In this document: piece by piece, positions 10,509-39,487 of the stretch
How positions within the stretch are numbered: position 1 is the stretch's first letter
How the letters are laid out: every line of letters begins with the position of its first letter
NCBI GenBank assembly: GCA_024699855.1
Contig: JAMPIQ010000002.1
Coordinates: 13,392,001-13,456,000, forward strand
Source of the DNA: Aphelenchoides besseyi
Lineage: Eukaryota > Nematoda > Chromadorea > Rhabditida > Aphelenchoididae
Length of the DNA: 64,000 nt
Direction of reading: 5' to 3'
The notes under the pieces: model-generated
What the model saw: the letters and a program-made list of their open reading frames with translations, nothing else
Database searches by the model: none
Told to the model about the DNA's origin: nothing
Program-made: the position numbers and the translations under genes

Positions 10509-10541
10509 AGTCAACGATTTTGCTTTCCGTTTTTCCAAAAT

Positions 10542-11052: not shown

Positions 11053-11390
11053 GAATGAGCTATCGCTCGTTCCGAAATGCCACCGTAAATTCGTACACTT
11101 CCCTTGTTAGTACGATTGCACATAGAAATATAAAATGGCAAAAATATTCCACGGCACCCGGCGTCGAGCGTTCATCCTAACCCATTTGGGGACGCGTGAG
11201 CTGCCGACTGAGCCATGGGTGCCGCCTCCTGCCTAGGAAGATTTGTCGCCTATCTACCCAGCGCGGTCTGGGAGAGACGCAGAGGCTGCGAGAGAGCGAA
11301 GACGGCAAGAGAGTGTGGGTGCAATAATGTTGTGTTTCCGTCTTCCCCACAAGCAAGTCCATTCCCTTTGGTGTTGTTTCTTGTGTTAGC
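11053..11390 (+). repeat. T block copy 1 (left flank of captured WDR19 segment)
   Basis: Repeat beginning GAATGAGCTATCGCTCGTTCC, containing CCGTAAATTCGTACACTTCCC, a tRNA-like module read on the minus strand (GGCACCCATGGCTCAGT ... GGGTGCCG) and ending TTGTTTCTTGTGTTAGCT. The same block recurs in inverted orientation at the other end of the captured segment (12572-12936), so the pair acts like long terminal inverted repeats. Confidence 0.88.
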
Positions 11391-12571: not shown

Positions 12572-12936
12572 AGCTAACACAAGAAACAACACCAAAGGGA
12601 ATGGACTTGCTTGTGGGGAAGACGGAAACACAACATTATTGCACCCACACTCTCTCTTGCCGTCTTCGCTCTCTCGCAGCCTCATCGTCTGGCTGTCTCT
12701 TGCTTTCCTCTGCGTCTCTCCCAGAGCGCGCTGGGTAGATAGGCGACAAATCTTCCGGGGCGAGAGGCGGCACCCATGGCTCAGTGGACAGCGGGGGCCG
12801 CAATGCGGTTAGGATGACGGTTCGACGCCGGGTGCTGTCAAATATTTTTGCCATTTTATATTTATTTCTTTTTGCAATCGTACTAACAAGGGAAGTGTAC
12901 GAATTTACGGTGGCATTTCGGAACGAGCGATAGCTC
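12572..12936 (-). repeat. T block copy 2 (right flank of captured WDR19 segment)
   Basis: Reverse complement of T block 1: starts AGCTAACACAAGAAACAAC and ends GAACGAGCGATAGCTCA. It carries the longer variant with an extra CATCGTCTGGCTGTCTCTTG segment. It abuts sequence (TGGCTTCCAATTGGTATCTC) that recurs next to the PDCD4 gene at 39.48 kb. Confidence 0.88.
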
Positions 12937-12938
12937 AG

Positions 12939-13489
12939 TGGCTTCCAATTGGTATCTCGCGGTATTGCTTTGTACTTATTTTGTTCTCTTATTTCCTTTA
13001 GTCTACTCCTCTAAAATCAAGTGGTCTGTGTAAATGGGCCGTTTTCGGACAACAGGAATTACTCTACGGCATCTGTGCAAACGGCAACTCTGTTGTTTGC
13101 GATGATTAGCTTTATCTCGCGTTACTTGTTGTACATATTTATTTCGACCTATTTATTTCCTGTTGTTCCGTTCCAATAAACTATTTTTGTTCGAATCTTT
13201 AGCGTGTGCTTAATCCTCCTGAGAATTGTATATAACTCCTCCAGACGACTTTGTTGCCTTTTCCCGTTAACCTTACGCGTTCTTAATAGCCACAATCGGA
13301 TCGTGTACATTCGTTAGTAATCTATTGTATAGTGCATTTCTCTCGAACTAGTTGTTCTCGGCTGTTCAATCGAAACATTTTGTCTTTTTGGAACAAAATG
13401 TATTAAAGATTAGGAATTAACAAGTCATTTGCTGGAACTGTATCTCGATAAGCAACAACCTTCTTAAGTGCGAGTTGTCCATAAGATGA
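12939..13489. other. WDR19 downstream flank with a lone coding-like 3' exon
   Basis: Contains a TTTAG acceptor at 13001 and an open exon 13002-13109 on the plus strand, ending GQQELLYGICANGNSVVCDD then TAG. This looks like the last exon of an unrecognised gene whose upstream part is missing here, because a T block sits directly before it. The whole stretch is duplicated in inverse orientation at about 38930-39487. The rest (13110-13489) looks like convergent 3' untranslated sequence. Confidence 0.45.
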
Positions 13490-23045: not shown

Positions 23046-23246
23046 GTTGATTGATTCGAAGAATTCAACACAAATGAAAAAATTAAAATCCTTTGCTTAG
23101 ATACCCTTCGATTTTCCACGTGGTTCAAAATTTGAAACGTGTCCGGTGTTGATTGGTTGTGAACAAATTTGCATAGAGCACTCATTCAAAAAAAACATCG
23201 TCCACTTTCGGTCCCATTCTGCACACATAAAATACAGAGTGTCCCA

Positions 23247-23465
23247 GCTGGGTAGATAGGCGACAAATCTTCCTAGACAAGAGGCGGCACGCATGGCTCA
23301 GTGGGCAAGGAGGGCCGCAGGGATGGCCGCAATGCAGTTAGGATGTACGCTCGACGCCGGGTGCCGTGGAATATTTTTGCCATTTTATATTTCTATGTGC
23401 AATCGTACTAATAAGGGAAGTGTACGAATTTACGGTGGCATTTCGGAACGAGCGATAGCTCATTC
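23247..23465 (-). repeat. T block copy 3, truncated
   Basis: Inverted T block starting inside it at GCTGGGTAGATAGGCGAC, with the tRNA-like variant carrying GGGCAAGGAGGGCCGCAGG. Just upstream (23232-23246) is AATACAGAGTGTCCCA, close to the mariner end sequence seen at 24651, so this T block was probably cut by or joined to a mariner terminus. Confidence 0.8.
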
Positions 23466-24022
23466 GAAGCGCCCCAAAAAGTTGCTTCTAGAAAGTTGTC
23501 TTCGTTTTATCGGAGGTCATGCTACAGCACGCTAGAACGCTCCAAAGTTTTGGGCCCTCGTAAAGTCTTCCAGATGATGAACAAGGGAAAGTGTGCTGTG
23601 ATGGCCGCGTGGGTAAGCGGTCTACCTGCAGAAGCTCTCTTCTTTTGGTGGACGCGGGTTCGATTCTTTCGATTGTCGGGTGCGTTCTGCAGCCTTGTAT
23701 CCAGAAATCAGAAGGAAAAAGAGCAAGAGGTAGGTGACTGCAAGTGGTTCAATCGGCTTTTTTCGCACTTTTTGGAGTCGCTTAATAGATCCAATGCGAG
23801 CACTTGAAATCACGATTGAAAAACTCGAACCCGCGTCCACCAAAAGAAGAGAGCTTCTGCAGGTAGACCGCTTACCCACGCGGCCATCACAGCACACTTT
23901 CCCTTGTTCATCATCTGGAAGACTTTACGAGGGCTCAAAACTTTGGAGCGTTCTAGCGTGCTGTAGCATGACCTCCGATAAAACGAAGACAACTTTCTAG
24001 AAGCAACTTTTTGGGGCGCTTT
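23466..24022. repeat. P block copy 2: near-perfect palindrome
   Basis: Arms run from CGAAGCGCCCCAAAAAGTTG inward through AGTTTTGGGCCCTCGTAAAG and the tRNA-like module. The spacer (TTCGATTGTCGGGTGCG ... AATCACGATTGAAAAACTC) is in the same orientation as in copy 1. With T blocks 3 and 4 on either side it forms a palindrome of about 1.1 kb. Confidence 0.88.
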
Positions 24023-24363
24023 GAATGAGCTATCGCTCGTTCCGAAATGCCACCGTAAATTCGTACACTTCCCTTAGTACGATTGTAAAAAGAAATGAAT
24101 ATAAAATGGCAAAAATATTCCACGGCACCCGGAGTCGAACTCTCATCCTAGACCCATTTGGGAACGCATTCAGCCGACTGAGCCATGGGTGCCGCCTCCT
24201 GCCTAGGAAGATTTGTCGCCTATCTACCCAGCGCGGTCGGGGAGAGACGCAGAGACTGCGAGAGAGCGAAGACGGCAGGAGAGAGTGTGGGTGCAATGAT
24301 GTTGTGTTTCCCTCTTCCCCAAAAGCAAGTCCATTCCCTTTGATGTTGTTTCTTGTGTTAGCT
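24023..24363 (+). repeat. T block copy 4
   Basis: Plus-orientation T block. Its tRNA-like module has complementary ends GGCACCC/GGGTGCC, an A-box-like TGGCTCAGTCGGCTG and a B-box-like GTTCGACTCC, but no good D or anticodon stem, so I call it tRNA-derived rather than a working tRNA. Confidence 0.85.
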
Positions 24364-24505
24364 ACTATGACAACTCATTGGTGTTGTTGTCCCAAAAAAA
24401 GTGATAATCACACGATGAGTCATGCGTGCTCCTATGGCGCAGTGGTATGCGCGGCGGGTTGAGGACCGAAAGGTCGCAGGTTCGACTCCCGATCATTACA
24501 AACAA
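24364..24505. repeat. Left inverted arm of the mariner cassette, with tRNA-like sequence
   Basis: Contains a second, different tRNA-like module: TATGGCGCAGTGGTATGCGC (a D arm with perfect GCGC/GCGC pairing), then GGACCGAAAGGTCGCAGG and TTCGACTCCC. The acceptor stem does not pair. The whole arm returns inverted at 25761-25911. Confidence 0.8.
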
Positions 24506-24650
24506 AAACGCACGCGCAGATTCACGAACCTTGAAGAAATCGTCATCCTTCTGAGGGCGTAGGGGCACAATTTTTGACGTTTTTTATCTTTTAAAATTAC
24601 TCATTTTTGTCAATTTTAGCCTTCTTTTCAACATTCAAAAAATGAAAAAA

Positions 24651-25735
24651 TACAGGGTGTCCCAGCACAACCGGAAGATTTTGAAAGCTTATTTCTCGGC
24701 GATTTCTGAACCGTTTTTTATGCGGTTTTTTGTTGTTGATAAATAAGACAAAGCAATTTTGTTTGGCGTCGAGAAAAGTTGCAAAATTCCATCGGAATTG
24801 CTCGAAAATTGCATCTTGGCCAAAGGATGCAGAAATTGACGAAATTTTCCAATGATGAGCATTTTGGACAGTCATTTTTTCAATTGTTTATCCGTTAAAT
24901 TTCAACACTTTTTCCGTTGTTTTCAATGACTTTGTGCATTCGTCGTTCAAAATCGTCCACTGCTCGATCAATCAATTCTCGATCCAAAATTTGCAAATTC
25001 CCGTTCGATTTGTGCTTCCAAGTCGTTCAAGTTTTCTGGCTCCGTCCGATAGACCCGATCTTTAAAATGACTCCAAAGAAAGAAGTCACACGGGGTTAAA
25101 TCCGGGCTGTAAGATGGCTACGGATATGGAGCAACAGAATTGTCTCCTCGCCGACCCATCCAACGCCCCGGGAACTAATTGTTCAACCAATCACGGACTC
25201 AAAATGTGAAATGGGCCGGGGCCCCATCGTGCATAAACACGACGAGGTCTTGAAGTCCCCATGATTCGAGAGTGAGGTAGAACCGATCTTGGAACAACCG
25301 AAGATACGAATCGCCGTTCACGTTGTCTTGCGTGAAAAACGGCCAACAACTCCCATTTTCCCGATAGCTGCCTAAATAGTCAATCGAGGAGAATGGAGAG
25401 AAGCTTCTCGGTACCTGAATTGCGAGATTACAATCTCGGTGTTGATTAAGACTTGCCAGTTGGGATTCATGTCCGACCAATAACAAAAGTTATGGCGATT
25501 GACGGCGCCTTGAACAGCGAAGTGGGTCTCGTCGGAAAACAGCAAATTCGAGAGGAAGCCGGGATTGTTGACGATAACTTCCAATTGAGAACGAGCAAAA
25601 TCAAAACGAGTAACCCAATTTGCAGGAGTTAACGCTTGAAGCAAACGGAGCTTGTACGGATGATAACTTTCATTCTGAACAAACACATGATTCGAATGTT
25701 TGAATAGCTTACCGTTGGAATTCGATGAATCGTCG
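24651..25735 (-). mobile_element. Decayed mariner-type element, 5'-truncated
   Basis: One end is intact in style (TACAGGGTGTCCCAGCACAA at 24651). Transposase coding runs on the minus strand, about 25735 to 24895: FHPYKIQ-like YHPYKLRLLQALTPANWVTR, NLLFSDETHFAVQG (first Asp), VFMHDGAPAHFT (second Asp), FPGRWMGRRGD, and SYSPDLTPCDFFLW (third Asp). Stops interrupt the last third, for example a TAG just before PSYSPDL. The N-terminal helix-turn-helix half is missing. It belongs to the mariner relatives with HDGAPxHF and SPDLTPCDFF motifs. It sits between inverted arms as cargo of the T-block cassette. Confidence 0.85.
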
Positions 25736-25760
25736 GTTCGTGAATCTGAGCACACGTCTT

Positions 25761-25911
25761 TGTTTGTAATGATCGGGAGTCGAACCTGCGACCTTTCGGT
25801 CCTCAACCCGCCGCGCATACCACTGCGCCATAGGAGCACGCATGACTCATCGTGTGATTATCACTTTTTTTGGGACAACAACACCAATGAGTTGTCATAG
25901 TAGCTAACACA
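25761..25911. repeat. Right inverted arm of the mariner cassette
   Basis: Reverse complement of 24364-24505, including the tRNA-like module, ending GTTGTCATAGTAG where the next T block starts. Confidence 0.8.
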
Positions 25912-26247
25912 AGAAACAACATCAAAGGGAATGGACTTGCTTTTGGGGAAGAGGGAAACACAACATCATTGCACCCACACTCTCTCCTGCCGTCTTCGCT
26001 CTCTCGCAGCCTCTGCGTCTCTCCCCGACCGCGCTGGGTAGATAGGCGACAAATCTTCCGAGTCAGGAGGCGGCACCCATGGCTCAGTCGGCAGTACGCG
26101 TCCCCAAGTGGGTTAGGATGAAAAAAGTTCGACGCCGGGAGCCGTCGAATACTTTTGCCATTTTATATTCATTTCTTTTTGCAATCGTACTAACAAGGGA
26201 AGTATACGAATTTACGGTGGCATTTCGGAACGAGCGATAGCTCATTC
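25912..26247 (-). repeat. T block copy 5
   Basis: Inverted T block, with the CCGACCGCGCTGGGTAG form and tRNA-like module GGCACCCATGGCTCAGTCGG. It forms the inverted partner of T block 4 around the mariner cassette. Confidence 0.86.
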
Positions 26248-26804
26248 GAAGCGCCCCAAAAAGTTGCTTCTAGAAAGTTGTCTTCGTTTTATCGGAGGTC
26301 ATGCTACAGCACGCTAGAACGCTCCAAAGTTTTGGGCCCTCGTAAAGTCTTCCAGATGATGAACAAGGGAAAGTGTGCTGTGATGGCCGCGTGGGTAAGC
26401 GGTCTACCTGCAGAAGCTCTCTTCTTTTGGTGGACGCGGGTTCGAGTTTTTCAATCGTGATTTCAAGTGCTCGCATTGGATCTATTAAGCGACTCCAACA
26501 AGTGCGAAAAAAGCCGATTGAACCACTTGCAGTCACCTACCTCTTGCTCTTTTTCCTTCTGATTTCTGGATACAAGGCTGCAGAACGCACCCGACAATCG
26601 AAAGAATCGAACTCGTAACCCGCAAAAGAAGAGAGCTTCTGCAGGTAGACCGCTTACCCACGCGGCCATCACAGCACACTTTCCCTTGTTCAGTATCTGG
26701 AAGACTTTACGAGGGCCCAAAACTTTGGAGCGTTCTAGCGTGCTGTAGCATGCCCTCCGATAAAACGAAGACAACTTTCTAAGAGCAACTTTTTGAGGCG
26801 TTTC
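26248..26804. repeat. P block copy 3, spacer inverted relative to copies 1 and 2
   Basis: Same palindromic arms as the other P blocks. The spacer reads GAGTTTTTCAATCGTGATTTC ... CCCGACAATCGAAAG, the reverse of copies 1 and 2. Confidence 0.87.
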
Positions 26805-26816
26805 GAATGAGCTATC
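26805..26816 (+). repeat. Start of T block copy 6, cut by the BEL/Pao insertion
   Basis: GAATGAGCTATC is the first 12 bases of a T block; its remainder resumes at 35519. The 5 bases CTATC (26812-26816) are repeated at 35519-35523 as target-site duplication. Confidence 0.85.
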
Positions 26817-27020
26817 TATAGAGGAATTTGTTCCGTTAGATATTTATTGATAGTAAAACTGATGAACAACTAGTGAAAGTATAACACTTAATTAGAAACG
26901 AGCAAACTCGTGAATTTATAGGCTACTGATAAGACGGGAACAAAGGGTTGTAAATGTCTGGTGCCGATGACGGGCTTCAATTTACGACTCTTTCATTAAT
27001 TGATAAGGGTTCCGTTCACA
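26817..27020 (-). repeat. BEL/Pao LTR, 3' copy
   Basis: 204 bp. In element sense it begins TGTGAACGGAACCC and ends GGAACAAATTCCTCTATA. It differs from the 5' copy at about three positions. The 3' end TA, in place of the usual CA, is a little unusual. Confidence 0.9.
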
Positions 27021-27049
27021 CTCCCGAGGCGAAACTGGAACGGGATTAC

Positions 27050-27925
27050 TCAGTTTTGATGAGGTTTAATCTGAACGAATCGCCGGATGAATTGAATAGG
27101 TGAGACAAGAGTTGTCCACGCAAGCATGATAAAGAAAATCAAACAGAGAGCAACGATTATGAGTGGTGCGTGAAGCAAATAGTAAAACAAGGATTCAAAG
27201 GCAATACGCAAATTGGGTTGATTGAATAATCCATTCAAGAAGTGAATGCGAACTGTTCCAATTGAGAGCTTCGGTCCTTGTAATGTGCCACTGAGAATTT
27301 GTCTCTGGGTCGACTTGGGGCATTGAACCATGCAAAATTCGTTGACCGAGGTTGCGGGGAGATGTAGTCGAACTTCATTTGTTTTATTGTTGCAGCGAAT
27401 TACGAAGTTTATAGAGGCGCAATCGACTCGAGCCATTACTTCTGAAGTTGATGTTTCACATTGATATTTCAAAAGTGCTCCGGGTTGACAGGCGGCGCAT
27501 CCTTTCATTTCCTCGAAGGTGGCACTGCATTTTGCAGTTGAGTCCAAAATTTGAAATTTGTGATCAAATGACAATGAGAGTGTTGTTATGGCATGATCGA
27601 TGTGGCGTCGGACGGTGGAGTTTGAACCGTATTCGAAGTCAATTGTTGGCAATGATTTGTTGAGATTGGTTGGAGGGTTAGAGTCGCATTGCACCAAATC
27701 CTGTCGAGTATCACATTGGCAGTCATGATAAAAACGACAGTGTGATGATCCAACCTTCGCGTCCTGTTCAGTTAGACAATGAACTTTGGTTCTTGATTCG
27801 TCCTTGACGATGTAGATCTTGTCTTTGATCTGTGCGAAGTTGGTGGTTGATGGGTGATGTGGTAGACTCAACTTCGTGATTTGCAACGTTCCTTGCTGGA
27901 ATTTAACCGTGTTGCCACTTGACAC
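27050..27925 (-). CDS. BEL/Pao envelope-like, C-terminal part
   Basis: An open frame of 291 codons, cysteine-rich (for example CRFYHDCQCDTR, MKGCAACQPG, FCMVQCPKST), with a single strong C-terminal membrane segment (PLIIVALCLIFFIMLAWTTL) and a short basic tail. Layout and cysteine spacing suggest the membrane-proximal portion of a class II fusion glycoprotein of the phlebovirus G2 (Gc) type known in nematode BEL elements; this assignment is inference. It lies downstream of the pol-env frame, separated by stops and a frame change, so the envelope is interrupted in this copy. Confidence 0.65.
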   Translation of the reverse strand: MSSGNTVKFQQGTLQITKLSLPHHPSTTNFAQIKDKIYIVKDESRTKVHCLTEQDAKVGSSHCRFYHDCQCDTRQDLVQCDSNPPTNLNKSLPTIDFEYGSNSTVRRHIDHAITTLSLSFDHKFQILDSTAKCSATFEEMKGCAACQPGALLKYQCETSTSEVMARVDCASINFVIRCNNKTNEVRLHLPATSVNEFCMVQCPKSTQRQILSGTLQGPKLSIGTVRIHFLNGLFNQPNLRIAFESLFYYLLHAPLIIVALCLIFFIMLAWTTLVSPIQFIRRFVQIKPHQN

Positions 27926-27991
27926 TTGAACGGTTTGTTGTGTTGTTGTGTTGAGCGTGTGAGTTGTGATGTTGAAAATGGCAACGTTGAA

Positions 27992-28300
27992 TCACTCTTG
28001 ACAATTGAAATGAGTGTGATCCTCGTTTGACTTTCGATGTGGGCAGATCTTATAGAACATGCACGATGGAGAAGTTAATAGGCATCCACATAAATAACCG
28101 ATACATCCGTTGGTGCAGTGTGTATGTCCAAGGATCTCGTTGACTTCAGTTCCAAATTCGGGCACCTTCTGTTTGATTTCAATGCTTTCACAGAAGCTTA
28201 CTTTGCATGAGCCTGCAAGAGGACATCGTCGAACTGCGTGCGTTGCAGGATAAAAATCAAATGAGTAATGTCGAATATTCGTGACACAAGTTGACATCAC
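27992..28300 (-). CDS. BEL/Pao envelope-like, middle fragment
   Basis: Cysteine-rich 102-codon frame (CPLAGSCKVSFCES, CTNGCIGYLCGC, CMFYKICPH) between the end of the long pol-env frame and the C-terminal envelope frame. It fits as the middle of the Gc-like ectodomain, out of frame with both neighbours. Confidence 0.55.
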   Translation of the reverse strand: MMSTCVTNIRHYSFDFYPATHAVRRCPLAGSCKVSFCESIEIKQKVPEFGTEVNEILGHTHCTNGCIGYLCGCLLTSPSCMFYKICPHRKSNEDHTHFNCQE

Positions 28301-28321
28301 ATCGACTAGTTGAACTTCAAT

Positions 28322-31300
28322 CTATTGACTGAGTTGTTTCTTGGGATTGGTCAGTCGAAAGCATACTCGTTCATGTAGTCGTATTGAGCTAATGGCGTTG
28401 TATTTGATTCGACAACTGTTGTCTTCACAATTCTCGGTGCTGGAAGTTAATACGATCGTCTGAGTGCATGCTGAGGCGGAAGAAATCAAAATCAGGATGA
28501 CGAGCAGTAATGTCTTCTTTCGATTGGCTGCAGATGCTGGAAACGAATATTGATTTGGTCGTGTAGTCGTTGTGTTGGTTGTTTTCCACGTTATCCATTT
28601 GAAGCAATTCCAGATGATACGTAGCGGAATTCGGACAATTTGTAAGGCTGCTGTGACGAATGAGAGAACCATCAGGAATGTGGTTAAGAAGAGGAAGAGG
28701 ATGATTGACTCGATTATTCGTCGAAAGGTCGGAAAACATTGTAGGTTGTGCAGCAACTGTGTACAGAGAGTACATTGGATTTGTTCGCAGAAATTGTGTG
28801 CTTGACACATTTTTGACGTGTTGGTCACAATGCGCCCTTCCCGCCAGGCAAATACGACGATGTTGTGTTCCGCTGCACTGATTTCTGCCGGTAGGAGCAT
28901 TGATTCGGTCTTCTTTGGTGATTCGATATGATAGTGTTTCGTGGGCACTGTAATTTCAAACAGATCGAATTGTGCGTCTGAATTGATGATAAATCCGGAG
29001 GTGTTGCACGTAATTGAAACCGTGGATTCCTCACCGGAGGTTGAACGGTGATTATAGGTTGTAATCGTACTGGATCCGTAAGCGATGATGGGTATCTCAG
29101 TATTGTTGATGTGATAAATCAGTTGTTCATATGATGGAGCGAAGCAGAATTTGGTACCGTTTCGGTAGCATGTGTTTTGAGCACAGCAATTTTCGAGCCC
29201 AGTTGGTAGACCAATCCCAACGCACTTTCTCCAATGATTTCGATGGCTTACAGTTAGTGATTTGACCAAGTGACTGGTACCGTCGTTAAGCCAAATTTTG
29301 TGAACGAGCCGAGTGACTGGAGTCGGATCACATTTGACCGTCGGCGTTGTTGAGCAGAAGTCTGGTGCTTGAAGACTGATGTTGTAGAGAGTTTTGGCAG
29401 TTGCGGACTTATCGTTTGGCACGGAATGATCAGCACAATGTGTTTGTTCCTTTGTGCAAGTGCACGGACTACCACAAGCAAATTGAAATTGTTTGTTGGT
29501 GTCGATCGTGGCGTGTACCACCTTTCCCGGTTCATTGAAGCATTCCTGTAGTCTATAACACAGCGTTCGGTCTGTTTTGAGGTAGACGGCGATTGAAACT
29601 AGTGTGCATTGATCTACGTGATAAGCGGTTGTTATGTCTTCGTTTCGACAGTTGGGAATGTGGTTTTGTGCGAATCCAAAATTTGCGAAAAAGGAGAGGA
29701 TAGCCATGATGACAAACGTTTGAAGCTTTCGAGGGCGTAGGTTGTATCCTCGTGTAGTTGGTCTTATGTCAGTTTCTTCCCCTTTTGTTTGGGGAGTTTC
29801 CTTTTTTATTGTCGTCCAACGGATTTCCAATGGGAAGGCGTGGTTCAGCGAACGTTGAGTTACGTTTCCTTTGGAATTCTTCAAGGTGACGCCTCGTATT
29901 TCGTTGTCAACCGACTTGTTAAGTGCGATAATTAACCCGGTTTTCCAGTTGATTTTTGGTTCATTTTCGTCGTGTATGAGAACGACTTCACCCACTTCGG
30001 GGCTTCGCTTCAGGCTACGATGAGCATCTTTGAGACTCAGTTGATGGTGTTGACGTAGTGATTGTAGGTAAAGTTCTCTCCACACATTCCAAAATGATTG
30101 ACGGATTGCTTGTGTTAGTCTGATGCGCTCCCTGAGACTTTCTCTTGATGATGCTTCTTGGGGTAAATACGGTTCGTCTTCATCGAAGTCGGTTGCGAAC
30201 TCTGGTGAGTTAAAGTTTGTCATGATTAGATCGATGGGTCGAATGATGTTTTCTTCAGAAGAGAAAAGTGGTCGTGTGTTGATGACGGAGGAAATTTCGG
30301 CGACGATTGTGATGTATTCGTCAAACGTTGGTATTTTCCGTGATAGTGCGGCTTTGTAGGCTGACTTGAAGGTGCCGACAAGCCGTTCGTAGTATCCACC
30401 TTTCCAGGGACTATAAGGTGTGATGAAGTTCCACTGGAGCTTGTGACCAAAGCGTTTTTGTAACAAAATGAATTGTGGAGCGTTGTCGCAGTAAGTTTTG
30501 GATGGCATTCCATACTTGGTGACGAATCGTCGGAAGGCGTTAAGCGTCGCTTCGGCAGTAGTTTCCAACGTTGCTTCGATGTGTATCGTTCTGGTTACGA
30601 GGCAAGTAAATAGCAGTGACCAGGATTTGATTCGATTGTTTAGCAGTCGCACCCTGGTTGGTCCGAAGTAATCTATTCCCACGTGCTTGAATGCTGTTGA
30701 TGGATTGAATCTTTCCGCTGGTAGCGCAGGCATTGTTGGTCTCGCGAACGGTTTGCTCTTGAGTCGATTACACCGATTGCAATTCCGTATCATTGCTTTT
30801 ACGACTGAAGTGAGTCCGGGGATCCAGAAATATTGTCGAACGGCTGCTGTTGTTTGGTCTCTGCCGCAATGAAATCGTTTGACATGGAGGTGTTCGACTA
30901 GTAGTTTAGTGATGCTGTGATGATTCGGCAAATATATTGGTGTTTTTGCACTAGCTCTGAGGTTGGAATTTTGAAGTCTCGTGGTGTAGATTCCATCCTC
31001 TTCCCTCATCTGGTATTGCCTGATAGATTGTTGACTTGGTGGGATATCTCGAGTTGCTGTTTTGATCAACATTGGAATGATGAGCTGATCCGTGATAGCA
31101 GATGTTTGAAGTGTCTTCAGTTTATCTCTGAATTTGATAGTTTTGGCCGCAGTAATCGCGAAGATAACTACTAATCGGATTACGTTCACGAGTTTTTGCC
31201 AGTTTGAGAGTCGGACGGCGACTTGGGAAATCCAATGGGGTGGTTCGTTGTGGTCCACTTGTTGGGTGTGTAGAGTTGTCGCTTTCTCGAGTGGCAGTAA

Positions 31301-32590
31301 CTGCGTTGTTGGTTGAATGGACCATGATTCCCTTGGTTGAGTGATGAAATCTGTTTCTTGCCACCACAGCTTGTTGTCTTGTAATTCCACCAAGTTCATT
31401 CCTCTGGTGGGTAGATCAGCTGGATTGAATGTGGTTGGCACGAATTTGTATTCCGTTGTGTGAGCGTTTTGTAGGATCTCTAACCGATTGGCCACGAACC
31501 TGATTACTCCTTCCAAAGTCGGTACTTTTATCCACGATAAGACGCATTTTGAATCGATCCAGTGTATGGTCTTCTCAATTTTCAGATGCTTCAGCTCTTC
31601 TGTGACAAACTTAGTGAGTTTGCAAGCAAGGGAGGCGGCTGTCAGTTCGAGTTTCGGAATGTTCATCATTTGCCACGGCGTGACAAGACTTTTTGCCATG
31701 ATGACCGAAGAGATGTTGTTTTGTTGAATATAGATTGCCATTCCAAAGGCACGTTCACTAGCATCTGAGAAAACGTGTAAGTTTACTGGTTGTCGAACGT
31801 CAACCTTGATGTGTCGTTTAACAGTTAGAGTTCGATCGTCATTCCCGATGAGTGCAAATTTCCAAGCCTTTGTTATCGATTCGTCAAGTACTTCGGTATC
31901 CCAATCGTAGAGCTTACTCGGTTTGTCTTTAGTTTTCGTTTCCGTTGCATGGCAGATTCGATGGAAAACGTATTTTGCTTCCAATGATGCAGGAGAAGCA
32001 ATGCCGAACGGGTCGTAGACCGCGGAATAGTGTTTGGAGACTTGTCGTTTTGTGAGTTTAGCCGATTCTCCGAATTTTGGCCATTTGATGGTGAACTCGT
32101 CGGTGTCCAAGAACCATTTCATACCAAACAAATTGCCAATATGATGACCATCTTGTTGTTTGAAGGTAGATCCAAAGTGTTTGTTGACGTTTTCATCACT
32201 TGAAGTGATTTCGTGCAATTGTAGTTGGGCTGCTTTGAAGATCTCAATTGCCGATGACATCCGTTTTATCCCTGTCGTCAAGTTTTCACTTAGTAGCATC
32301 AGGTTGTCAACGTAGATGTTGTCTTGGATTTCGCGCGCGACTTCGTCGTTGACTGTCGATAAGTGATGCTGCACGGTTGCATTGAGTATGAATGGACTTG
32401 AGATGATTCCAAATGGAATTCTGGTGAATTTCAAGTGCAGCAAGTTTGTTGAACTTGGAGGTTGTAGAGGATCCTTCAACCATAGGTATCTTACTGAGTC
32501 CCGATCGTCTTCAGCAAGGCTGATTTTCAAGAATGCCGATTTGAGGTCTTCGAAGGTGACGGCCTTTCCGAATCGAGCTCTTAAGAGCAT
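28322..32590 (-). CDS. BEL/Pao polyprotein: RT, RNase H, integrase, then envelope-like N-terminal part
   Basis: An open frame of 1,422 codons. Residues 1-300 hold reverse transcriptase (FGIISSPFILNATVQHHL, then IYVDNLMLL near residue 93; upstream fingers lie outside this frame). RNase H starts at about 270 (LHVFSDASERAFGMAIYI). The integrase has HHCC zinc finger HCGRDQ...RNCNRCNRLKSK (about 600-640) and DDE residues in HVGIDYFGP, TYCDNAPQFI and YYERLVGTFKSAYKA. From about residue 962 a signal-peptide-like stretch (MAILSFFANFGFAQ) begins a cysteine-rich envelope region with a membrane segment (IILFLFLTTFLMVLSFV) and a second hydrophobic leader (LLLVILILISSASA) before a Gc-like start. Pol and envelope thus share one frame. 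Confidence 0.88.
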   Translation of the reverse strand: MLLRARFGKAVTFEDLKSAFLKISLAEDDRDSVRYLWLKDPLQPPSSTNLLHLKFTRIPFGIISSPFILNATVQHHLSTVNDEVAREIQDNIYVDNLMLLSENLTTGIKRMSSAIEIFKAAQLQLHEITSSDENVNKHFGSTFKQQDGHHIGNLFGMKWFLDTDEFTIKWPKFGESAKLTKRQVSKHYSAVYDPFGIASPASLEAKYVFHRICHATETKTKDKPSKLYDWDTEVLDESITKAWKFALIGNDDRTLTVKRHIKVDVRQPVNLHVFSDASERAFGMAIYIQQNNISSVIMAKSLVTPWQMMNIPKLELTAASLACKLTKFVTEELKHLKIEKTIHWIDSKCVLSWIKVPTLEGVIRFVANRLEILQNAHTTEYKFVPTTFNPADLPTRGMNLVELQDNKLWWQETDFITQPRESWSIQPTTQLLPLEKATTLHTQQVDHNEPPHWISQVAVRLSNWQKLVNVIRLVVIFAITAAKTIKFRDKLKTLQTSAITDQLIIPMLIKTATRDIPPSQQSIRQYQMREEDGIYTTRLQNSNLRASAKTPIYLPNHHSITKLLVEHLHVKRFHCGRDQTTAAVRQYFWIPGLTSVVKAMIRNCNRCNRLKSKPFARPTMPALPAERFNPSTAFKHVGIDYFGPTRVRLLNNRIKSWSLLFTCLVTRTIHIEATLETTAEATLNAFRRFVTKYGMPSKTYCDNAPQFILLQKRFGHKLQWNFITPYSPWKGGYYERLVGTFKSAYKAALSRKIPTFDEYITIVAEISSVINTRPLFSSEENIIRPIDLIMTNFNSPEFATDFDEDEPYLPQEASSRESLRERIRLTQAIRQSFWNVWRELYLQSLRQHHQLSLKDAHRSLKRSPEVGEVVLIHDENEPKINWKTGLIIALNKSVDNEIRGVTLKNSKGNVTQRSLNHAFPLEIRWTTIKKETPQTKGEETDIRPTTRGYNLRPRKLQTFVIMAILSFFANFGFAQNHIPNCRNEDITTAYHVDQCTLVSIAVYLKTDRTLCYRLQECFNEPGKVVHATIDTNKQFQFACGSPCTCTKEQTHCADHSVPNDKSATAKTLYNISLQAPDFCSTTPTVKCDPTPVTRLVHKIWLNDGTSHLVKSLTVSHRNHWRKCVGIGLPTGLENCCAQNTCYRNGTKFCFAPSYEQLIYHINNTEIPIIAYGSSTITTYNHRSTSGEESTVSITCNTSGFIINSDAQFDLFEITVPTKHYHIESPKKTESMLLPAEISAAEHNIVVFAWREGRIVTNTSKMCQAHNFCEQIQCTLCTQLLHNLQCFPTFRRIIESIILFLFLTTFLMVLSFVTAALQIVRIPLRIIWNCFKWITWKTTNTTTTRPNQYSFPASAANRKKTLLLVILILISSASACTQTIVLTSSTENCEDNSCRIKYNAISSIRLHERVCFRLTNPKKQLSQ

Positions 32591-33140
32591 TCCAACCAGG
32601 TTTGCAATAAGAGTCGGCCCTCGGTAAAGATATCTGTTAAGAGAGTCGTCAGAACGTAGCGTGGCACTGGCATCGTGTACTACTCGTAGCTTTTGTTTGT
32701 CGACTCGAAAGACTCCATGATGTGGGAGATAACGATTTTTCAGTTAAACGTTATCCTTTGGTGCTACTTCTATGATCCCTTCTTGGAGTTGGAGTTAAAT
32801 GATTTGGTCGTAGCGTTTCAACCTTTCTGGGTGCTTGGATAGTGAATTCCAAACGGAAGTCAAGCGGCCGAGACTCATCTAGAAGTGATCACTTTTGAGT
32901 GGATAGGCTTCTTTCCATGGCCATGCGGCTTCGTAGCGTCCATCAGGAAGACGTCGAAGTGTTTTTTTGGAATAGTTGAAGTGCCTCTTCATCATCATTA
33001 GAGGGCACATCGGTTAATCCCAAGGTTTCCAAATTCCATTCAAACTTCAGTTGTTTGGCATCCGTTTTGGCGGTTGTTTTGAATATTATTTGGTCCTTTT
33101 CTTGGGGATCTTCTTCGTTTGTTGTGGCGTTTGCGATGTG
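32591..33140 (-). pseudogene. BEL/Pao reverse transcriptase N-terminal part, frame-broken
   Basis: The stretch between protease and the long pol frame should encode the RT fingers. Readable pieces (for example WRYLPHHGVFRV-like and VRVVHDASATLRSDDSLN-like segments on the minus strand) are spread over more than one frame with stops, so this part of the copy is disrupted. Confidence 0.55.
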
Positions 33141-33788
33141 CTAACTAGTTGATTCTGGGGTAGACCCATGTACAATTGGTCCAAATTGAGTGTGCCAGAG
33201 GGTGTGTCCGGATCGCAGCTTGGAGACGCGTTGCAATACTTGATGATCATTGCCGATTAAAATGTTGGGTGTGAGTGTTTTCGTCTTCCAGGTTGTTTGG
33301 CCATTGGGTGTGTACCGTTCGATAACACCGGCGGTGACTTCGTCATTGATAGTGTCGACTCTTGTCAAAACATATTCGTGCGATGTTTTGTCGCTATGTT
33401 GGATGACTACTTTGTACTTTTCGGTGCGAACGGTTTTGCTGTTTCCACCGAAGGTTTGAATTGTGCATCTTGTGAATGATGCCGGTTCCAATTGAAGTTG
33501 ATTTACCAATGAAGTAGAGATATACGATGCTGTGCTCCCGTTGTCAAGAAAGATGTTCGTTGAGATGGAGGCCTCTTGATTTCCCTGCTTCCATACAGGT
33601 CGTTGCATTACAGGGAGTAGAGTCTTGTTGTGTTTTCGGACCGAGTTTGAAAACTCCCAATCGACATGCGTTTTTCCGATACTTGATCTTTTGGTTTTTT
33701 CTTTCTTTGTTGAGCGGACGACGTTTGCTGATTGGTGTTGCCTTCGCATAACGCTGTATGGTGATTCGGATTCTTGCAGTGATAGCAT
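33141..33788 (-). CDS. BEL/Pao protease region (DUF1758-like)
   Basis: Open frame with the retropepsin-like core IFLDNGSTASYISTSLVNQL, followed by TVRTEKYKVVIQHSDKTSHE and ILIGNDHQVL. This is the aspartyl-protease layout of BEL/Pao elements. It is in a different frame from both the gag-like region and pol. Confidence 0.75.
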   Translation of the reverse strand: MLSLQESESPYSVMRRQHQSANVVRSTKKEKTKRSSIGKTHVDWEFSNSVRKHNKTLLPVMQRPVWKQGNQEASISTNIFLDNGSTASYISTSLVNQLQLEPASFTRCTIQTFGGNSKTVRTEKYKVVIQHSDKTSHEYVLTRVDTINDEVTAGVIERYTPNGQTTWKTKTLTPNILIGNDHQVLQRVSKLRSGHTLWHTQFGPIVHGSTPESTS

Positions 33789-35301
33789 GAAAACTTCGAT
33801 TTGCAGCTCTTGGTGTCATGATCACCTTTCAAACATTTGGTGCAAAGCTTGAGGTGTTGCGCTCTCTTCTTCCTTGCTCCAACGGTTTGTGAGTTGAACA
33901 ATTAGAGGTGTAGTGTTCTTCCGTACATAAGGCGCATACTGGTACGATTGTTCGGCGAGACTTCGATATCGCCTGCGGCGTGGTTGATTTTTTCGTGTGT
34001 TGAGCATCGTGATTGTTGTATTTTTGATTTTTATTTGCTCTGTTGTTGTTTTGGTTGTTGGAATTTTTGTCGCTGCGGTTGTTGTTGACTGCGATTGATG
34101 AGTGAACGTACTCGTTGATTTTCAGTATAGCGTTCATCATTGCTAGTCTCTTGGCCACACTCCACGCAGCATCGTTCAGTCGCGCGGAAGTTACTCGCGT
34201 TAGCATTGCTGATGGAAGTTTGTCTTCGATGCAAATTTGAACAAGATGATGTTCAGGATTATCTCCTGCTAATTTGAGCATTCGATAAATTCTCGCTGCT
34301 TCATCGTGTAGTTGTCGCAGAGAAGCGGTTGAGTCGTTGGCTTGTGGTAGATCCTTCAGTTGTTGATGCAAACTTTGACGTAGAAGCGTGGCGTCACCGA
34401 ATCGTTCCTTGAGAAGAGAGACGACCATGTAGTAGTTGTTGTCTGTGACGTCATAGCCTTCGATCACTGCTAATGCGGTGCCAGAGAGTAGTGACCTTAA
34501 ATAAGAAAATTTAAGACTGGTTGGTATCGCTTGTTCATCCACCGTATTCTGGAAATCGTTCCAGAAACTCAACCATTTTTATGGGTTTTCCATCAAATCT
34601 TTCGAGTTGAAGGACTGGGAGTTGTGCCATTTGTGAGCGATTCCACATTGTTGAGTCCATTGCCAGCGGTCGTTGTGACGGAGCTAGAAACGACCCACCT
34701 CCCAGCACCGAAGAGACAAGCGGATTGGCAGTAGTTGTTCTGGGACTGGGAGATGTAAAAATGCTCGATGTACTTGTGGGTCCCAATGTTGGTGCGGTGG
34801 TAGTTGACGTTATTGTAGGTGTAGTAGTGGTGACGGGCACCAACGGATCGTTGAATTGAAAGTTGTTTCGTGTGGAGCTCATCAACGGATTAAGAGTTGT
34901 GTTGATGTCAGCGAGAGTTAGTTCCGTTTGATTAGTGATCTTTCCAAGTTTAATGTCAATGCCGCAGCTGAGTCAATAAAATGTTGGTATCCATTTGGCT
35001 CTCGTACGCGTTCATCATACTTCTGTTGCTCCTCTAATTTCGCGACAACGGTTGGCAAGAGTTTAATTGCCTCGCGCCATTGTTCTAAGAGACTCTCTAC
35101 GAAAGATCTTCTCTGTTGGAGACGTAGTTGCAGGTTGATGATTGGTTTTTGTAGCGCCAAGATGTCGATCTTGACGTCGAGCGGTGGTCTGTTCGTTTGA
35201 TGTATACGAGTATCCAAACTGTCGGCATCTTGGACGGCGGCCTCAAGTTGGTACGAGGCTGGGCCTAGTGGACGTCTAATTTCGGCACATGTTCGAGACA
35301 T
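33608..35301 (-). pseudogene. BEL/Pao gag-like region, several frame changes
   Basis: Starts MSRTCAEIRRPLGPASYQLE near 35301, just after the primer site. It passes through a Thr/Ser/Pro linker (about 34885-34600), a capsid-like part (NDFQNTVDEQAIPTSLKFSY, LKDLPQANDS), and ends with CCHC-type knuckles (CTKCLKGDHDTKSC and CYHCKNPNHHTALC). At least three frame changes separate the pieces (near 34900, 34560 and 33870). Confidence 0.75.
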
Positions 35302-35314
35302 TGCTAGCGGACCA

Positions 35315-35518
35315 TATAAAGGAATTTGTTCCTTTAGATATTTATTGATAGTAAAACTGATGAACAACTAGTGAAAGTATAACACTTAATTAGAAACGAG
35401 CAAACTCGTGAATTTATAGGCTACTGATAAGACGGGAGCAAAGGGTTGTAAATGTCTGGTGCCGATGACGGGCTTCAATTTACGACTCTTTCATTAATTG
35501 ATAAGGGTTCCGTTCACA
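35315..35518 (-). repeat. BEL/Pao LTR, 5' copy
   Basis: 204 bp, partner of 26817-27020. Directly followed, in element sense, by the primer-binding-site-like TGGTCCGCTAGC. Confidence 0.9.
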
Positions 35519-35885
35519 CTATCGCTCGTTCCGAAATGCCACCGTAAATTCGTACACTTCCCTTGTTAGTACGATTGCACATAGAAATATAAAATCGCAA
35601 AAATATTCCACGGCACCCGGCGTCGAGCGCTCATCCTAACTGCATTGCGGCCATCCCTGCGGCCCTCCTTGCCCACTGAGCCATGCGTGCCGCTTCCTGC
35701 CTAGGAAGATTTGTCGCCTATCTACCCAGCGCGATCTGGGAAAGACGCAGAGGAAAGCAAGAGACAGCCAGACGATGAGGCTGCGAGAGAGCGAAGACGG
35801 CAAGAGAGTGTGGGTGCAATAATGTTGTGTTTCCGTCTTCCCCAAAAGCAAGTCCATTCCCTTTGATGTTGTTTCTTGTGTTAGC
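35519..35885 (+). repeat. T block copy 6, main part
   Basis: Continues the T block interrupted at 26816. Same long variant (extra GACAGCCAGACGATGAGG region) as T block 2. It leads into the second captured WDR19 segment. Confidence 0.88.
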
Positions 35886-37068
35886 TGCTTAAATCACTAT
35901 GAACCTTTCAGTTCCACCTGAGTTGTTTGTATTTACGATCGTTATGGTGCGAAAGCAGAAGAAATGCGATTGGGATCGTGAGTTGTTCTTTTACGAACGT
36001 TTATTTCTTTATGTTCAGCAAAATTGACCGTTTACGTTGGGAACGGAATGGCGAGGTCTTGGCCATCGTGAGCAGCCAAGTGAGCGTCGTAACGCTCTTT
36101 GAGTTGGCGACTCGGCAGATCATTCCGTTGGATGTGGCCATGGGAACCAAGTATGAATTGTACGATAGAACGATTCGAGGATCTTTTTAGGGGATTGCCA
36201 ACATTTGCCGAGTGGTCCACGGACAAACCGGTGCTTATTATTGGTAACAATCACGGCAACATCCTTCTTTTCAATTACCGGACATCGAGGTTAATTGATG
36301 GATTCGGCTGTTTTTAAGGTTTTTTGCAGAAAGATTCCACTGATTGGAAAACATCAACGGTCGATCATCACCGGGGCTTTCAATTCGGACATATTTGCAC
36401 TGGGTTCCGATGATATGACGGTGACAGTAAACAATCTCGAAGGAGAAACCATTGCAACAATAAGCTCTACGGCAGAGCCCTCCGTTTTGAAGTTGATTCG
36501 CTTTCATCGTGCCGATGTACAAAGTGATCAGCCGGAAATTTTCGTTTGTTCAAATCCGAAAACTTAAACGAACAATCAGATTTAGTTGAGTTTTGTTGCC
36601 GGTCGTCGAACTTTGAGTGTCGCTTCAATTGCCGATACGAACAATCCAATCAGTTTGCAGTTTCAAGACAAGTACGGGCATATCGTTGATACGGCTTGGT
36701 ACGGGAACGGTATGGTGGTCATAGGATTCGAGCACGGATTTCTGGTCGTTTTGTCTGCGCAGAATTGGAACGAAGTGAATCACGAGCTTTTTTCCGTTCA
36801 GGAATTCCATAACACAATCTCGTACATTTGTTTGAATACCGACGTTGGCAAACTGTTCACCGCCGGCGATAATGGACAGTAAGTGCACAGACATCGAAGG
36901 ACACGACAATAAGCTTTTAGGATCAAAATCCGCAATTTGGATGAACTCCAAGAGCTGAGTGATATAATTGAAAGCAGTTCTGATGCAAAAGCCGTCACAC
37001 GAATCCAATGTACAGAAGACGGAACGTTGACTGCAGTTTCCACTGAAAGTCCCGCACTTTCTGTCTAG
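35886..37068 (+). pseudogene. Captured N-terminal half of WDR19/IFT144, copy 2
   Basis: Almost identical to 11391-12571 with the same two end points and the same T-block junctions. It shares with copy 1 several changes relative to the parent gene (for example GCGACTCGGCAG against parent GCGACCCGGCAG, and GATGAACTCC against GATGAGCTCC), and has a few private ones (TTTTACGAACG, AGAACGATTCG). Introns are retained. No start codon or 3' half, so non-functional as IFT144. Confidence 0.92.
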
Positions 37069-37436
37069 CTAACACAAGAAACAACACCAAAGGGAATGGA
37101 CTTGCTTGTGGGGAAGACGGAAACACAACATTATTGCACACACACCCTCTCCTGCCGTCTTCGCTCTCTCGCAGCCTCTGCGTCTGGCTGTCTCTAGCTT
37201 TCCTCTGCGTCTTTCCCAGATCGCGCTGGGTAGATAGGCGACAAATCTTCCTAGGCAGGAGGCGGCACCCATGGCTCAGTCGGCAGCTCACGCGTCCCCA
37301 AATGGGTTAGGATGAAAAAGTTCGACTCCGGGTGCCGTGGAGTATTTTTGCCATTTTATATTTCTATGTGCAATCGTACTAACAAGGGAAGTATACGAAT
37401 TTACGGTGGCATTTCGGAACGAGCGATAGCTCATTC
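37069..37436 (-). repeat. T block copy 7
   Basis: Inverted partner of T block 6. The tRNA-like module here has ends GGCACCC and GGGTGCC and TTCGACTCC at 37320-37335. Confidence 0.88.
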
Positions 37437-37992
37437 GAAGCGCCGCAAAAAGTTGCTCTTAGAAAGTTGTCTTCGTTTTATCGGAGGGCACGCTACAGCA
37501 CGCTAGAACGCTCCAAAGTTTTGGGCCCTCGTAAAGTCTTCCAGATGATGAACAAGGGAAAGTGTGCTGTGATGGCCGCGTGGGTAAGCGGTCTACCTGC
37601 AGAAGCTCTCTTCTTTTGGTGGACGCGGGTTCGAGTTTTTCAATCGTGATTTCAAGTGCTCGCATTGGATCTATTAAGCGACTCCAACAAGTGCGAAAAA
37701 AGCCGATTGAACCACTTGCAGTCACCTATCTCTTGCTCTTTTTCCTTCTGATTTCTGGATACAAGGCTGCAGAACGCACCCGACAATCGAAAGAATCGAA
37801 CCCGCGTCCACCAAAAGAAGAGAGCTTCTGCAGGTAGACCGCTTACCACGCGGCCATCACAGCACACTTTCCCTTGTTCATCATCTGGAAGACTTTACGA
37901 GGGCCCAAAACTTTGGAGCGTTCTAGCGTGCTGTAGCATGCCCTCCGATAAAACGAAGACAACTTTCTAAGAGCAACTTTTTGGGGCGCTTC
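37437..37992. repeat. P block copy 4, spacer orientation as in copy 3
   Basis: Palindromic arms as in the other P blocks. The spacer GAGTTTTTCAATCGTGATTTC runs in the same direction as copy 3 and opposite to copies 1 and 2. Confidence 0.88.
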
Positions 37993-38253
37993 GAATGAGC
38001 TATCGCTCGTTCCGAAATGCCACCGTAAATTCGTACACTTCCCTTGTTAGTACGATTGCACATAGAAATATAAAATGGCAAAAATATTCCACGGCACCCG
38101 GCGTCGAGCGATCATCCTAACCGTATTGCGGCCATCCCTGCGGCCCTCCTTGCCCACTGAGCCATGCGTGCCGCTTCCTGCCTAGAAAGATTTGTCGCCT
38201 ATCTACCCAGCGCGGTCGGGGAGAGACGCAGAGGCTGCGAGAGAGCGAAGACG
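37993..38253 (+). repeat. T block copy 8, truncated at a WDR19 junction
   Basis: Breaks off at GAGAGCGAAGACG, where the sequence switches to WDR19 (ACAGCGAGATTG). Both parents contain GACGGC at this point, so the joint lies on about 6 bp of microhomology. Confidence 0.85.
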
Positions 38254-39487
38254 ACAGCGAGATTGTTGATTCGTGTTACAACGAATATCAGTCGTTTCCC
38301 GCAACGTAAAACAACTCAATTCAAAGTGTTTAATCAACAAACTGGTTTGTAGATGAAATCGAGATCATGACTTCAACGGTCATTACTTGCGCAAAAGCCG
38401 GATTGCGGGAAACAGCTTTCAAGTTGGCAGTTCGTTTACTGCAAGGTAGAAACAAAGACAAGATGGACAAGAAGTACCGACGAAAACTCGAAACAATCGT
38501 ACGGTAAGCTAAAGTTCGAGAATTTGTTTGAAATTCCGTACAGAAAAGCTGATAATGTAAGTGACAAGCCGGAAGTAATGACCGCGTGCCCGGAATGTGC
38601 GACCGATACTCGAGAGTTTGATTTGGCTTGTGCTGGCTGTAAAAGCACGATTCCGTATTGTATCGTGACGGTTAGTTGAAGAGAGATTGAAGGAAATTTT
38701 TCCATTAGGGAAAACACATAATCGCAAATGACTTCGCTGTTTGTGCTTCTTGTGGGATGCCAGGTTTCTATTCGGAGTTCCAACAGTAAGTGAAATCAGT
38801 TCAACAGAAATGGAACGTTTATTTAGGCTTTCGAACAACAATGAACCGTGTCCAATGTGTGGGAAATTGCTGTCGAATCCGGTTTCTGCGAACGGAGCCG
38901 AGTATATGGCACGAGTAAACGAGAAACAACAGTAGTCATCTTATGGACAACTCGCACTTGAGAAGGTTGTTGCTTATCGAGATACAGTTCCAGCAAATGA
39001 CTTGTTAATTCCTAATCTTTAATACATTTTGTTCCAAAAAGACAAAATGTTTCGATTGAACAGCCGAGAACAACTAGTTCGAGAGAAATGCACTATACAA
39101 TAGATTACTAACGAATGTACACGATCCGATTGTGGCTATTAAGAACGCGTAAGGTTAACGGGAAAAGGCAACAAAGTCGTCTGGAGGAGTTATATACAAT
39201 TCTCAGGAGGATTAAGCACACGCTAAAGATTAGAACAAAAATAGTTTATTGGAACGGAACAACAGGAAATAAATAGGTCGAAATAAATATGTACAACAAG
39301 TAACGCGAGATAAAGCTAATCATCGCAAACAACAGAGTTGCCGTTTGCACAGATGCCGTAGAGTAATTCCTGTTGTCCGAAAACGGCCCATTTACACAGA
39401 CCACTTGATTTTAGAGAAGTAGACTAAAGGAAATAAGAGAACAAAATAAGTACAAAGCAATACCGCGAGATACCAATTGGAAGCCAT
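38254..39487 (+). pseudogene. Inverted copy of the WDR19 3' end and its downstream flank
   Basis: Reverse-complement copy of about 12939-14176. It contains the last WDR19 exons, including zinc-binding segments CPECATDTREFDLACAGC and CPMCGKLLSNPV, the stop codon, the 3' flank and the lone coding-like exon (here 39317-39424, minus). It differs from the parent at scattered bases (for example TCTACTTCTC against TCTACTCCTC). It has no upstream WDR19 exons. It ends at AAGCCA, beyond which the sequence continues into the PDCD4 3' region, whereas the parent copy meets a T block at the same point. Confidence 0.9.

What the first reader, a model, noticed from the sequence alone, without database searches (positions are those of the whole stretch)
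23247..39487. Array of large palindromes alternating with cargo, one cargo being exons of a host ciliary gene
Once the later BEL insertion is set aside, the order is T'-P-T, mariner cargo, T'-P-T, WDR19 N-terminal cargo, T'-P-T, WDR19 C-terminal cargo. Each T'-P-T is a palindrome of about 1.1-1.3 kb with tRNA-like modules, and cargo 1 and cargo 2 are each bounded by inverted T blocks. The same P-T-WDR19-T' unit also sits at 10542-12936. I know of no named element family with this layout. It could be a foldback (Pack-type) DNA element spreading host exons, or the product of hairpin-primed replication.
Basis: partly seen in the sequence, partly recalled or inferred. Interest (0 to 1): 0.88.

Follow-up and report, generated by a model that had tools for sequence, protein, structure and literature searches.

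The report
Fold-back transposon seeding inverted gene duplications
A hairpin-shaped jumping gene in a nematode, probably a plant parasite, appears to have triggered mirror-image copying of its surroundings and the local spread of pieces of a nearby cilia gene, and the same trace is visible at two other places in the genome.

Summary
The layout is real. It is not a new dispersed element family. The palindrome centre ("P") is a non-autonomous fold-back member of a Tc4/Tc5-type DNA transposon: five ~2.3-kb relatives have ~330-bp inverted ends, CTNAG/TNA target sites and Tc5-type transposase sequence. The outer "T" sequence was found only at C2:13.403-13.590 Mb (10 matches). The host cargo is unspliced DNA of the adjacent WDR19 gene; W has four near-identical copies, gene included, all there.

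Key evidence is the target site. Of 26 two-ended insertions found elsewhere, 23 carry direct TNA repeats, 2 inverted, 1 neither. The two inverted cases have 99 and 100 of 100 flank bases mirrored, against 17-35 in the other 24; their mirror tract starts inside the fold-back arm. Local cores 2 and 3 show inverted TNA too; core 1 and the first unit do not. Best reading: hairpin or template-switch copying across the transposon made one founder palindrome; recombination multiplied it and WDR19 pieces were joined in. Window units lack paired Tc5 ends, so Tc5-driven Pack-type transposition is not supported. tRNA-like modules were not confirmed. Host: probably Aphelenchoides besseyi.

The parts
10437..11106 (+). 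fold-back core of the first unit, chimeric (outer left 105 bp like another subfamily; its other end like the local cores); left end preceded by CTGA, right end followed by TTAG, so neither a direct nor an inverted duplication
11110..11391 (+). O block (part of 'T'), b-type
11392..12572 (+). W: WDR19 N-terminal genomic segment, introns kept, 99.4% to the gene
12571..12883 (-). O block, inverted, grouping with the a side
12887..12937 (+). outer 51 bp of a fold-back arm, broken at the WDR19 locus boundary
12939..14175 (-). 3' end of the resident WDR19 gene, source of cargo C
17300..18480 (-). part of the resident WDR19 gene that is the source of W (the copy in L040 corresponds to 17300-19193)
23247..23408 (-). 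O block, inverted, a-type, truncated
23412..24076 (+). fold-back core 1 (Tc4/Tc5-type); right end lacks bases present in the other cores
24077..24364 (+). O block, b-type
24365..24534 (+). X block
24535..25734 (+). M: contains a piece of a dispersed Tc1/mariner-type element (from about 24640 on)
25735..25900 (-). X block, inverted
25901..26190 (-). O block, inverted, b-type
26194..26816 (-). fold-back core 2, left portion
26817..35518 (-). later BEL/Pao insertion inside core 2, 5-bp CTATC duplication (observed only)
35519..35565 (-). fold-back core 2, right portion
35569..35886 (+). O block, a-type
35887..37067 (+). W copy, 99.7% to the 11392 copy
37066..37379 (-). O block, inverted, b-type
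37383..38046 (-). fold-back core 3
38050..38262 (+). O block, a-type, truncated; joined to C where O and gene share GACGGCA (the joined copy reads GACGACA)
38250..39486 (+). C': copy of the WDR19 3' end (14175 to 12939), 99.35%

Best explanation
A Tc4/Tc5-type fold-back transposon (core) lies at the centre of each palindrome. Shown: the core family is dispersed, has relatives with Tc5 transposase sequence and normally sits in CTNAG with a direct TNA duplication; at local cores 2 and 3 the flanks are mirror images and the trinucleotide is inverted; two loci elsewhere show the same, with the mirrored tract starting inside a fold-back arm and running through the end of the element and the target site into host DNA. 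Inferred: replication or break repair switched template from one fold-back arm to the other (hairpin or fold-back priming) and copied the flank back on the opposite side, giving one founder palindrome O'-core-O near WDR19. Its two arms diverged (now 78-85% alike in their core-proximal parts). The palindrome was then copied several times by recombination between cores and O blocks, and WDR19 and Tc1/mariner-type pieces were joined in, in part perhaps by template switching at short homologies. One composite now sits about 0.18 Mb from the gene between mariner ends flanked by TA, perhaps moved by mariner transposase.
For: Core = Tc5 family: PF04236 7.8e-17, PF03184 2.6e-06, PF03221 just below its cut-off; nearest named relatives are nematode, weaker ones insect and tardigrade; CTNAG/TNA ends. 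Target-site test: elsewhere 23 of 26 adjacent end pairs direct, 2 inverted, 1 neither; local pairs 3 of 5 inverted (core 3 and the two near-identical cores of L040), 2 neither; core 2, split by BEL/Pao and so not in that tally, reads TAA|TTA, inverted. Mirror test on 100 bp of flank: 22-35 matches in 23 direct-repeat loci, 17 in the 'neither' locus, 99 and 100 in the two inverted ones. Switch points inside the arm: identity ends about 121 bp in at L047; first difference about 200 bp in at L050. Founder: core-proximal O arms fall into two clades (support 0.986) and cores 1-3 each have one arm of each clade. Recombination inside a core: chimera at 10437-11106. Locality of O, X, W, C. In 3 of 4 cargo units the two cargo-side ends of O are 99-100% alike, as exchange between them would give (96% in the fourth). 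Shared bases at joints: GACGGCA at O|C, TA at W|O'.
Against: No reads could be examined. L050's flanks differ only by a few indels, so that case alone could be very recent or partly an assembly product. Only two cases outside the local family. Core 1 and the first unit do not show an inverted trinucleotide, and L040's cores, though inverted at TNA, are flanked outside by mariner, not by mirrored O (ungapped matches 33 and 30 of 100); ungapped mirror counts for cores 1, 2 and 3 are only 35, 39 and 70 of 100 because the arms differ by indels (gapped O identities 83, 89 and 86%). Gene conversion between arms running on into the flank would leave much the same trace. A 2-bp shared joint is expected by chance, and the O|W joint shows none that is clear. 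The decline of O similarity away from W is seen in pairs without W too, so it does not show how W spread. L040's palindrome is centred on cargo and needs another step.
Confidence: 0.7

Rival explanations
1. Pack-TIR element: WDR19 pieces were captured inside a Tc4/Tc5-type element and the whole unit was moved by Tc5 transposase.
For: W is bounded by inverted blocks next to fold-back ends and exists in three copies plus the gene. Pack-TIRs exist in animals (PMC8277862, abstract and results sections 7-9 read). The first unit has a true Tc5 end with CTGA on its left.
Against: No unit in the window ends in paired Tc5 ends with a TNA duplication: the right end at 12937 breaks inside an arm, 23247 and 38262 break inside O; Tc5 ends of the cores also face the cargo. 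The copies found lie within about 187 kb. The only outer ends that look like a transposition are mariner ends with TA in L040.
Confidence: 0.1
2. Only ectopic recombination and gene conversion between fold-backs, with no hairpin or template-switch step.
For: Chimeric core, mosaic O blocks; Galileo in Drosophila has chimeric copies with non-matching duplications and lengthens inverted repeats, conversion being proposed (PMC3573991, passages read).
Against: Two solo copies with mirrored flanks (L047, L050) need flank sequence copied to the other side of the same element, beyond the homology. Conversion that runs past homology is then close to break-induced copying.
Confidence: 0.14
3. Assembly artefact: reads folded back at a palindrome.
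For: Palindromes are hard to assemble (general knowledge), and L050's flanks are almost perfectly mirrored.
Against: Local arms differ by 11-17% over O; core arms at L047 and L050 diverge inside the element, where a read folded at the loop would keep them identical up to the loop; each window core carries two diverged arm types.
Confidence: 0.04
4. The core inserted into the centre of a pre-existing palindrome.
For: CTNAG is itself palindromic, so a palindrome centre could be a target.
Against: A TNA duplication would be direct even in a palindromic target, barring later substitution; it is inverted at L047, L050 and local cores 2 and 3, and the mirror tract starts inside the element at L047 and L050.
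Confidence: 0.02

Closest known systems
Tc4 (C. elegans fold-back) and Tc5 transposons
   Same: Fold-back architecture, CTNAG target with TNA duplication (Tc4 facts from passages of PMC11071193; its fold-back structure from a cited title there and from recall), Tc5-type transposase domains
   Different: Here some copies sit at the centres of larger palindromes in which the flanks, not only the element, are inverted
Pack-TIRs of animals, including Ssk-FB4 in Drosophila (PMC8277862)
   Same: Host gene DNA from nearby (56.9% of 281 unique Pack-TIRs lie within 15 kb of the parent), short shared bases at joints (median 2 bp), a fold-back element, FB4, in the Ssk case; template switching proposed there
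   Different: Cargo lies between palindromes, Tc5 ends of the cores face it, and no window unit has the element's own outer ends and duplications; that paper assigns FB4 to MULEs, not to the Tc family
Palindrome-induced inverted duplications (E. coli, PMC3315005, abstract and outline; human PMC3907307 and yeast PMC10622511, search listing only)
   Same: Duplication centred on a pre-existing inverted repeat
   Different: Here the repeat is a transposon with a readable target site, so the event can be recognised by an inverted trinucleotide in a natural genome
Galileo (Drosophila) inverted-repeat expansion and chimeric copies (PMC3573991, passages)
   Same: Expansion of inverted repeats by copying one end to the other; chimeric copies with non-matching duplications
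   Different: In the passages seen the Galileo expansion runs inward into the element; here the copying runs outward into host DNA

Membership tests
Tc4/Tc5-type DNA transposon (for the cores) | DDE transposase with Tc5 C-terminal domain in longer relatives | tested here: met
   PF04236 61.8 bits (cut-off 27.4), PF03184 27.6 (cut-off 22); PF03221 20.9, just below 22.2
Tc4/Tc5-type DNA transposon (for the cores) | CTNAG target with TNA duplication | tested here: met
   direct TNA in 23 of 26 non-local pairs; flanking C and G in 22 of those 23 (read; L042 has A in place of G)
Tc4/Tc5-type DNA transposon (for the cores) | ends shared with the transposase-bearing relatives | tested here: met
   same outer ends; arms of window cores 1-3 79-83% alike to the L037 copy
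Pack-TIR / Pack-TYPE element (for the cargo units) | host sequence between the two ends of one TIR element | tested here: not met
   for Tc5 ends: cargo lies between two cores; in L040 it does lie between two mariner copies
Pack-TIR / Pack-TYPE element (for the cargo units) | target duplication at the outer ends | tested here: not met
   for both window units; L040 has TA at its mariner ends, too short to be telling
Pack-TIR / Pack-TYPE element (for the cargo units) | host DNA copy with a parent elsewhere | tested here: met
   99.2-99.4% to the resident WDR19 locus
Inverted duplication centred on a palindrome | flanks mirrored about a pre-existing inverted repeat | tested here: met
   not met outside the two L040 cores, where mariner adjoins
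Inverted duplication centred on a palindrome | hairpin or fold-back intermediate | not testable with these tools
   needs experiment

The most novel reading that the evidence does not exclude
Tc4/Tc5-type fold-back transposons in this nematode recurrently seed inverted duplications of host DNA beside them, an inverted target-site trinucleotide being the molecular signature. It was seen at two solo loci and one local founder, duplicated a 205-codon open frame in one case, and at WDR19 grew into an array that traps and multiplies gene segments. This would be a general, directly countable route from fold-back transposons to gene duplication.
Probability: 0.5. Interest if true: 0.68.

Novelty: new variant of a known kind. 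Interest (0 to 1): 0.56.

Why it matters
How natural palindromes and inverted duplications arise is largely inferred from yeast, bacteria and tumours. A transposon whose target site can be read gives each event a before-and-after mark: a direct TNA means simple insertion, an inverted TNA means the flank was copied back across the element. That makes the question countable in any genome with fold-back transposons, and it links such elements to local gene duplication without transposition.

Tried and rejected
A dispersed composite element: rejected, O and X were found only locally. tRNA genes in the T blocks: none by ARAGORN, by cmscan at curated cut-offs, at E<=1 on L001, L037, L041 and L049 or at E<=10 over 23200-26820; the MIR841 matches there lie below that family's cut-off (75 against 200 bits) and I read them as the long hairpin. 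Helitron left of 10437: suspected by eye from a recalled motif; Pfam showed none in three frames; dropped. Retrocopy: rejected, introns are kept and W ends mid-exon (my reading). Original neighbour of the C copy beyond 39486: no match in the window. Decline of O similarity with distance from W, first taken as a sign of W transfer, is equal in pairs without W and was dropped. The 205-codon frame at L050 has no Pfam match and is only an open frame. Paper searches: searches returned nothing; the rows shown (15 of 52; 15 of 17; 8 of 206; 6 of 6; 4 of 4; 6 of 1,172; 12 of 12) did not name an inverted target-site trinucleotide beside fold-back transposons; that does not show that it is not in print.
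Full report
1. The observation. With modules named by what they turned out to be, the order is O'(23247-23408) - core1(23412-24076) - O(24077-24364) - X - M(24535-25734) - X' - O'(25901-26190) - core2(26194-26816 and 35519-35565, split by BEL/Pao) - O(35569-35886) - W(35887-37067) - O'(37066-37379) - core3(37383-38046) - O(38050-38262) - C'(38250-39486). A related unit lies at 10437-12937. The BEL/Pao copy has end repeats 98.5% alike and a 5-bp CTATC duplication inside core 2, so it is a later insertion.

2. Where it is. The genome has 47.4 Mb in 31 contigs, and the window is C2:13392001-13456000. A KTI12 frame in the window matches an Aphelenchoides besseyi protein at 96% identity whose longest contig has the length of C2, 17,779,264. 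I take the organism to be A. besseyi.

3. The core. A query made of core 1 with its flanks has 86 matches in the genome (40 of 93 candidates scored), those away from the WDR19 region covering the core. Five ~2.3-kb copies with ~330-bp inverted ends, 96.7-98.6% alike in full length, carry transposase sequence; the one frame scanned, from L037, matches the Tc5 C-terminal domain and DDE_1, with the Tc5 DNA-binding domain just under its cut-off. Copies sit in C|TNA|...|TNA|G, as described for Tc4 (passages of PMC11071193). The cores are short fold-back members of this family.

4. The T blocks are local. O gave 10 matches, all at C2:13.403-13.590 Mb; X gave 3, in the same region. W occurs four times counting the gene, C twice. 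No dispersed T-P-cargo family was found.

5. The target-site test. If a core simply inserts, its two TNA are direct repeats. Among the 94 end matches (13 expected-type matches in the reversed control pattern), 31 pairs of adjacent facing ends lie within 3 kb. Of 26 outside the WDR19 region, 23 are direct, 2 inverted (C2:5461663 = L047; C3:2252183 = L050) and 1 neither (C1:17233160 = L053). Of 5 local pairs, 3 are inverted (core 3 and the two cores of L040, which are near-identical copies of each other) and 2 neither (core 1, whose right end has lost bases, and the chimeric core at 10437). Core 2, split by BEL/Pao, was not in that tally; read directly it is inverted. I then counted matches in mirror register over 100 bp of flank: 22-35 at the 23 direct loci, 99 and 100 at the two inverted ones, 17 at L053. 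L038/L039 and, by their flanks, L066/L067 look like segmental duplicates, so about 21 direct loci are independent. For the local cores the same ungapped count gives 35 (core 1), 39 (core 2), 70 (core 3), 24 (first unit), 33 and 30 (L040): the window arms differ by indels (gapped O identity 83, 89 and 86%), and L040's cores adjoin mariner outside. An inverted TNA would not come from insertion into a palindromic target, barring later substitution.

6. Switch points. At L047 the two sides are identical from the flank through the element's end to about 121 bp inside the arm, then diverge abruptly; the mirrored flank is about 120 bp. At L050 the first difference lies about 200 bp inside the arm, and the mirrored flank is about 2.64 kb with only a few indels and contains a 205-codon open frame. 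In the three ordinary solo copies checked, the arms are nearly identical over the outer 100 bp and drop to about 80% in the next 50 (ungapped). A tract that starts inside one arm and ends in host DNA is what template switching or hairpin-primed copying between arms predicts; a read folded at the loop would be identical up to the loop.

7. One founder here. The core-proximal halves of the O blocks form two clades (support 0.986), and cores 1, 2 and 3 each have one arm from each clade, 82, 78 and 85% alike across the core. So a single O'-core-O palindrome probably formed, aged, and was then copied as a block. Recombination went on: the core at 10437-11106 is a chimera with another fold-back subfamily, and in 3 of 4 cargo units the two cargo-side O ends are 99-100% alike, 96% in the fourth.

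8. Cargo. W and C are WDR19 by Pfam and PDB sequence matches. By my reading W begins in an intron and ends mid-exon. The three W copies share their right joint to O' and three differences from the gene, so W was probably captured once. The longest copy, in L040, is a continuous 1,894-bp piece (window 19193 to 17300) that by my reading includes the end of a neighbouring zinc-finger gene. W copies are 99.1-99.7% alike although their O flanks differ more; how W came to lie between different O blocks is not settled. Joints: GACGGCA shared at O|C with one base changed in the joined copy, TA at W|O', none clear at O|W.

9. L040. At C2:13.585-13.593 Mb, mariner-core-O-X-M(part)-WDR19 piece-O'-core-mariner' has 2.37-kb arms 99.8% alike and ends at mariner ends with TA (sequence; a 96% copy of that mariner in the window has a Transposase_1 match). 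Movement by mariner transposase is an inference.

10. Known neighbours. [quoted passage not shown] Palindrome-centred inverted duplication is known in E. coli (PMC3315005, abstract and outline). Galileo lengthens inverted repeats and has chimeric copies with non-matching duplications (PMC3573991, passages). The present case works like these, but the cargo units fail two of three defining tests of a Pack-TIR. What is added is outward copying from a fold-back transposon into host DNA, marked by an inverted target site.

11. Limits. No reads were available. The outside sample has two positive loci. Counts from the genome search are lower bounds.

Noticed in passing
window 26817-35518: The BEL/Pao insertion carries, in its long frame, a stretch matching the Phlebovirus G1 glycoprotein model (1.6e-06), i.e. 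an envelope-like domain.
   Followed up: no
L038 and L039 (C2:16527500-16541000): Two ~2.3-kb Tc5-family copies lie in the arms of a separate inverted duplication of at least 5.3 kb at 99.2% with about 2.9 kb between the arms, not centred on a core.
   Followed up: partly
L050, C3:2249521-2255523: Mirror-image duplication on both sides of a fold-back core, with a 205-codon open frame without Pfam match in each arm.
   Followed up: partly
L054 and L071 (C2:13998500 and C2:13923100): Two fold-back copies about 77 kb apart, in opposite orientation and each with one recognised end, share flank sequence, suggesting another inverted segmental duplication.
   Followed up: no
window 48729-48847: A 5S rRNA gene (97.7 bits).
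   Followed up: no
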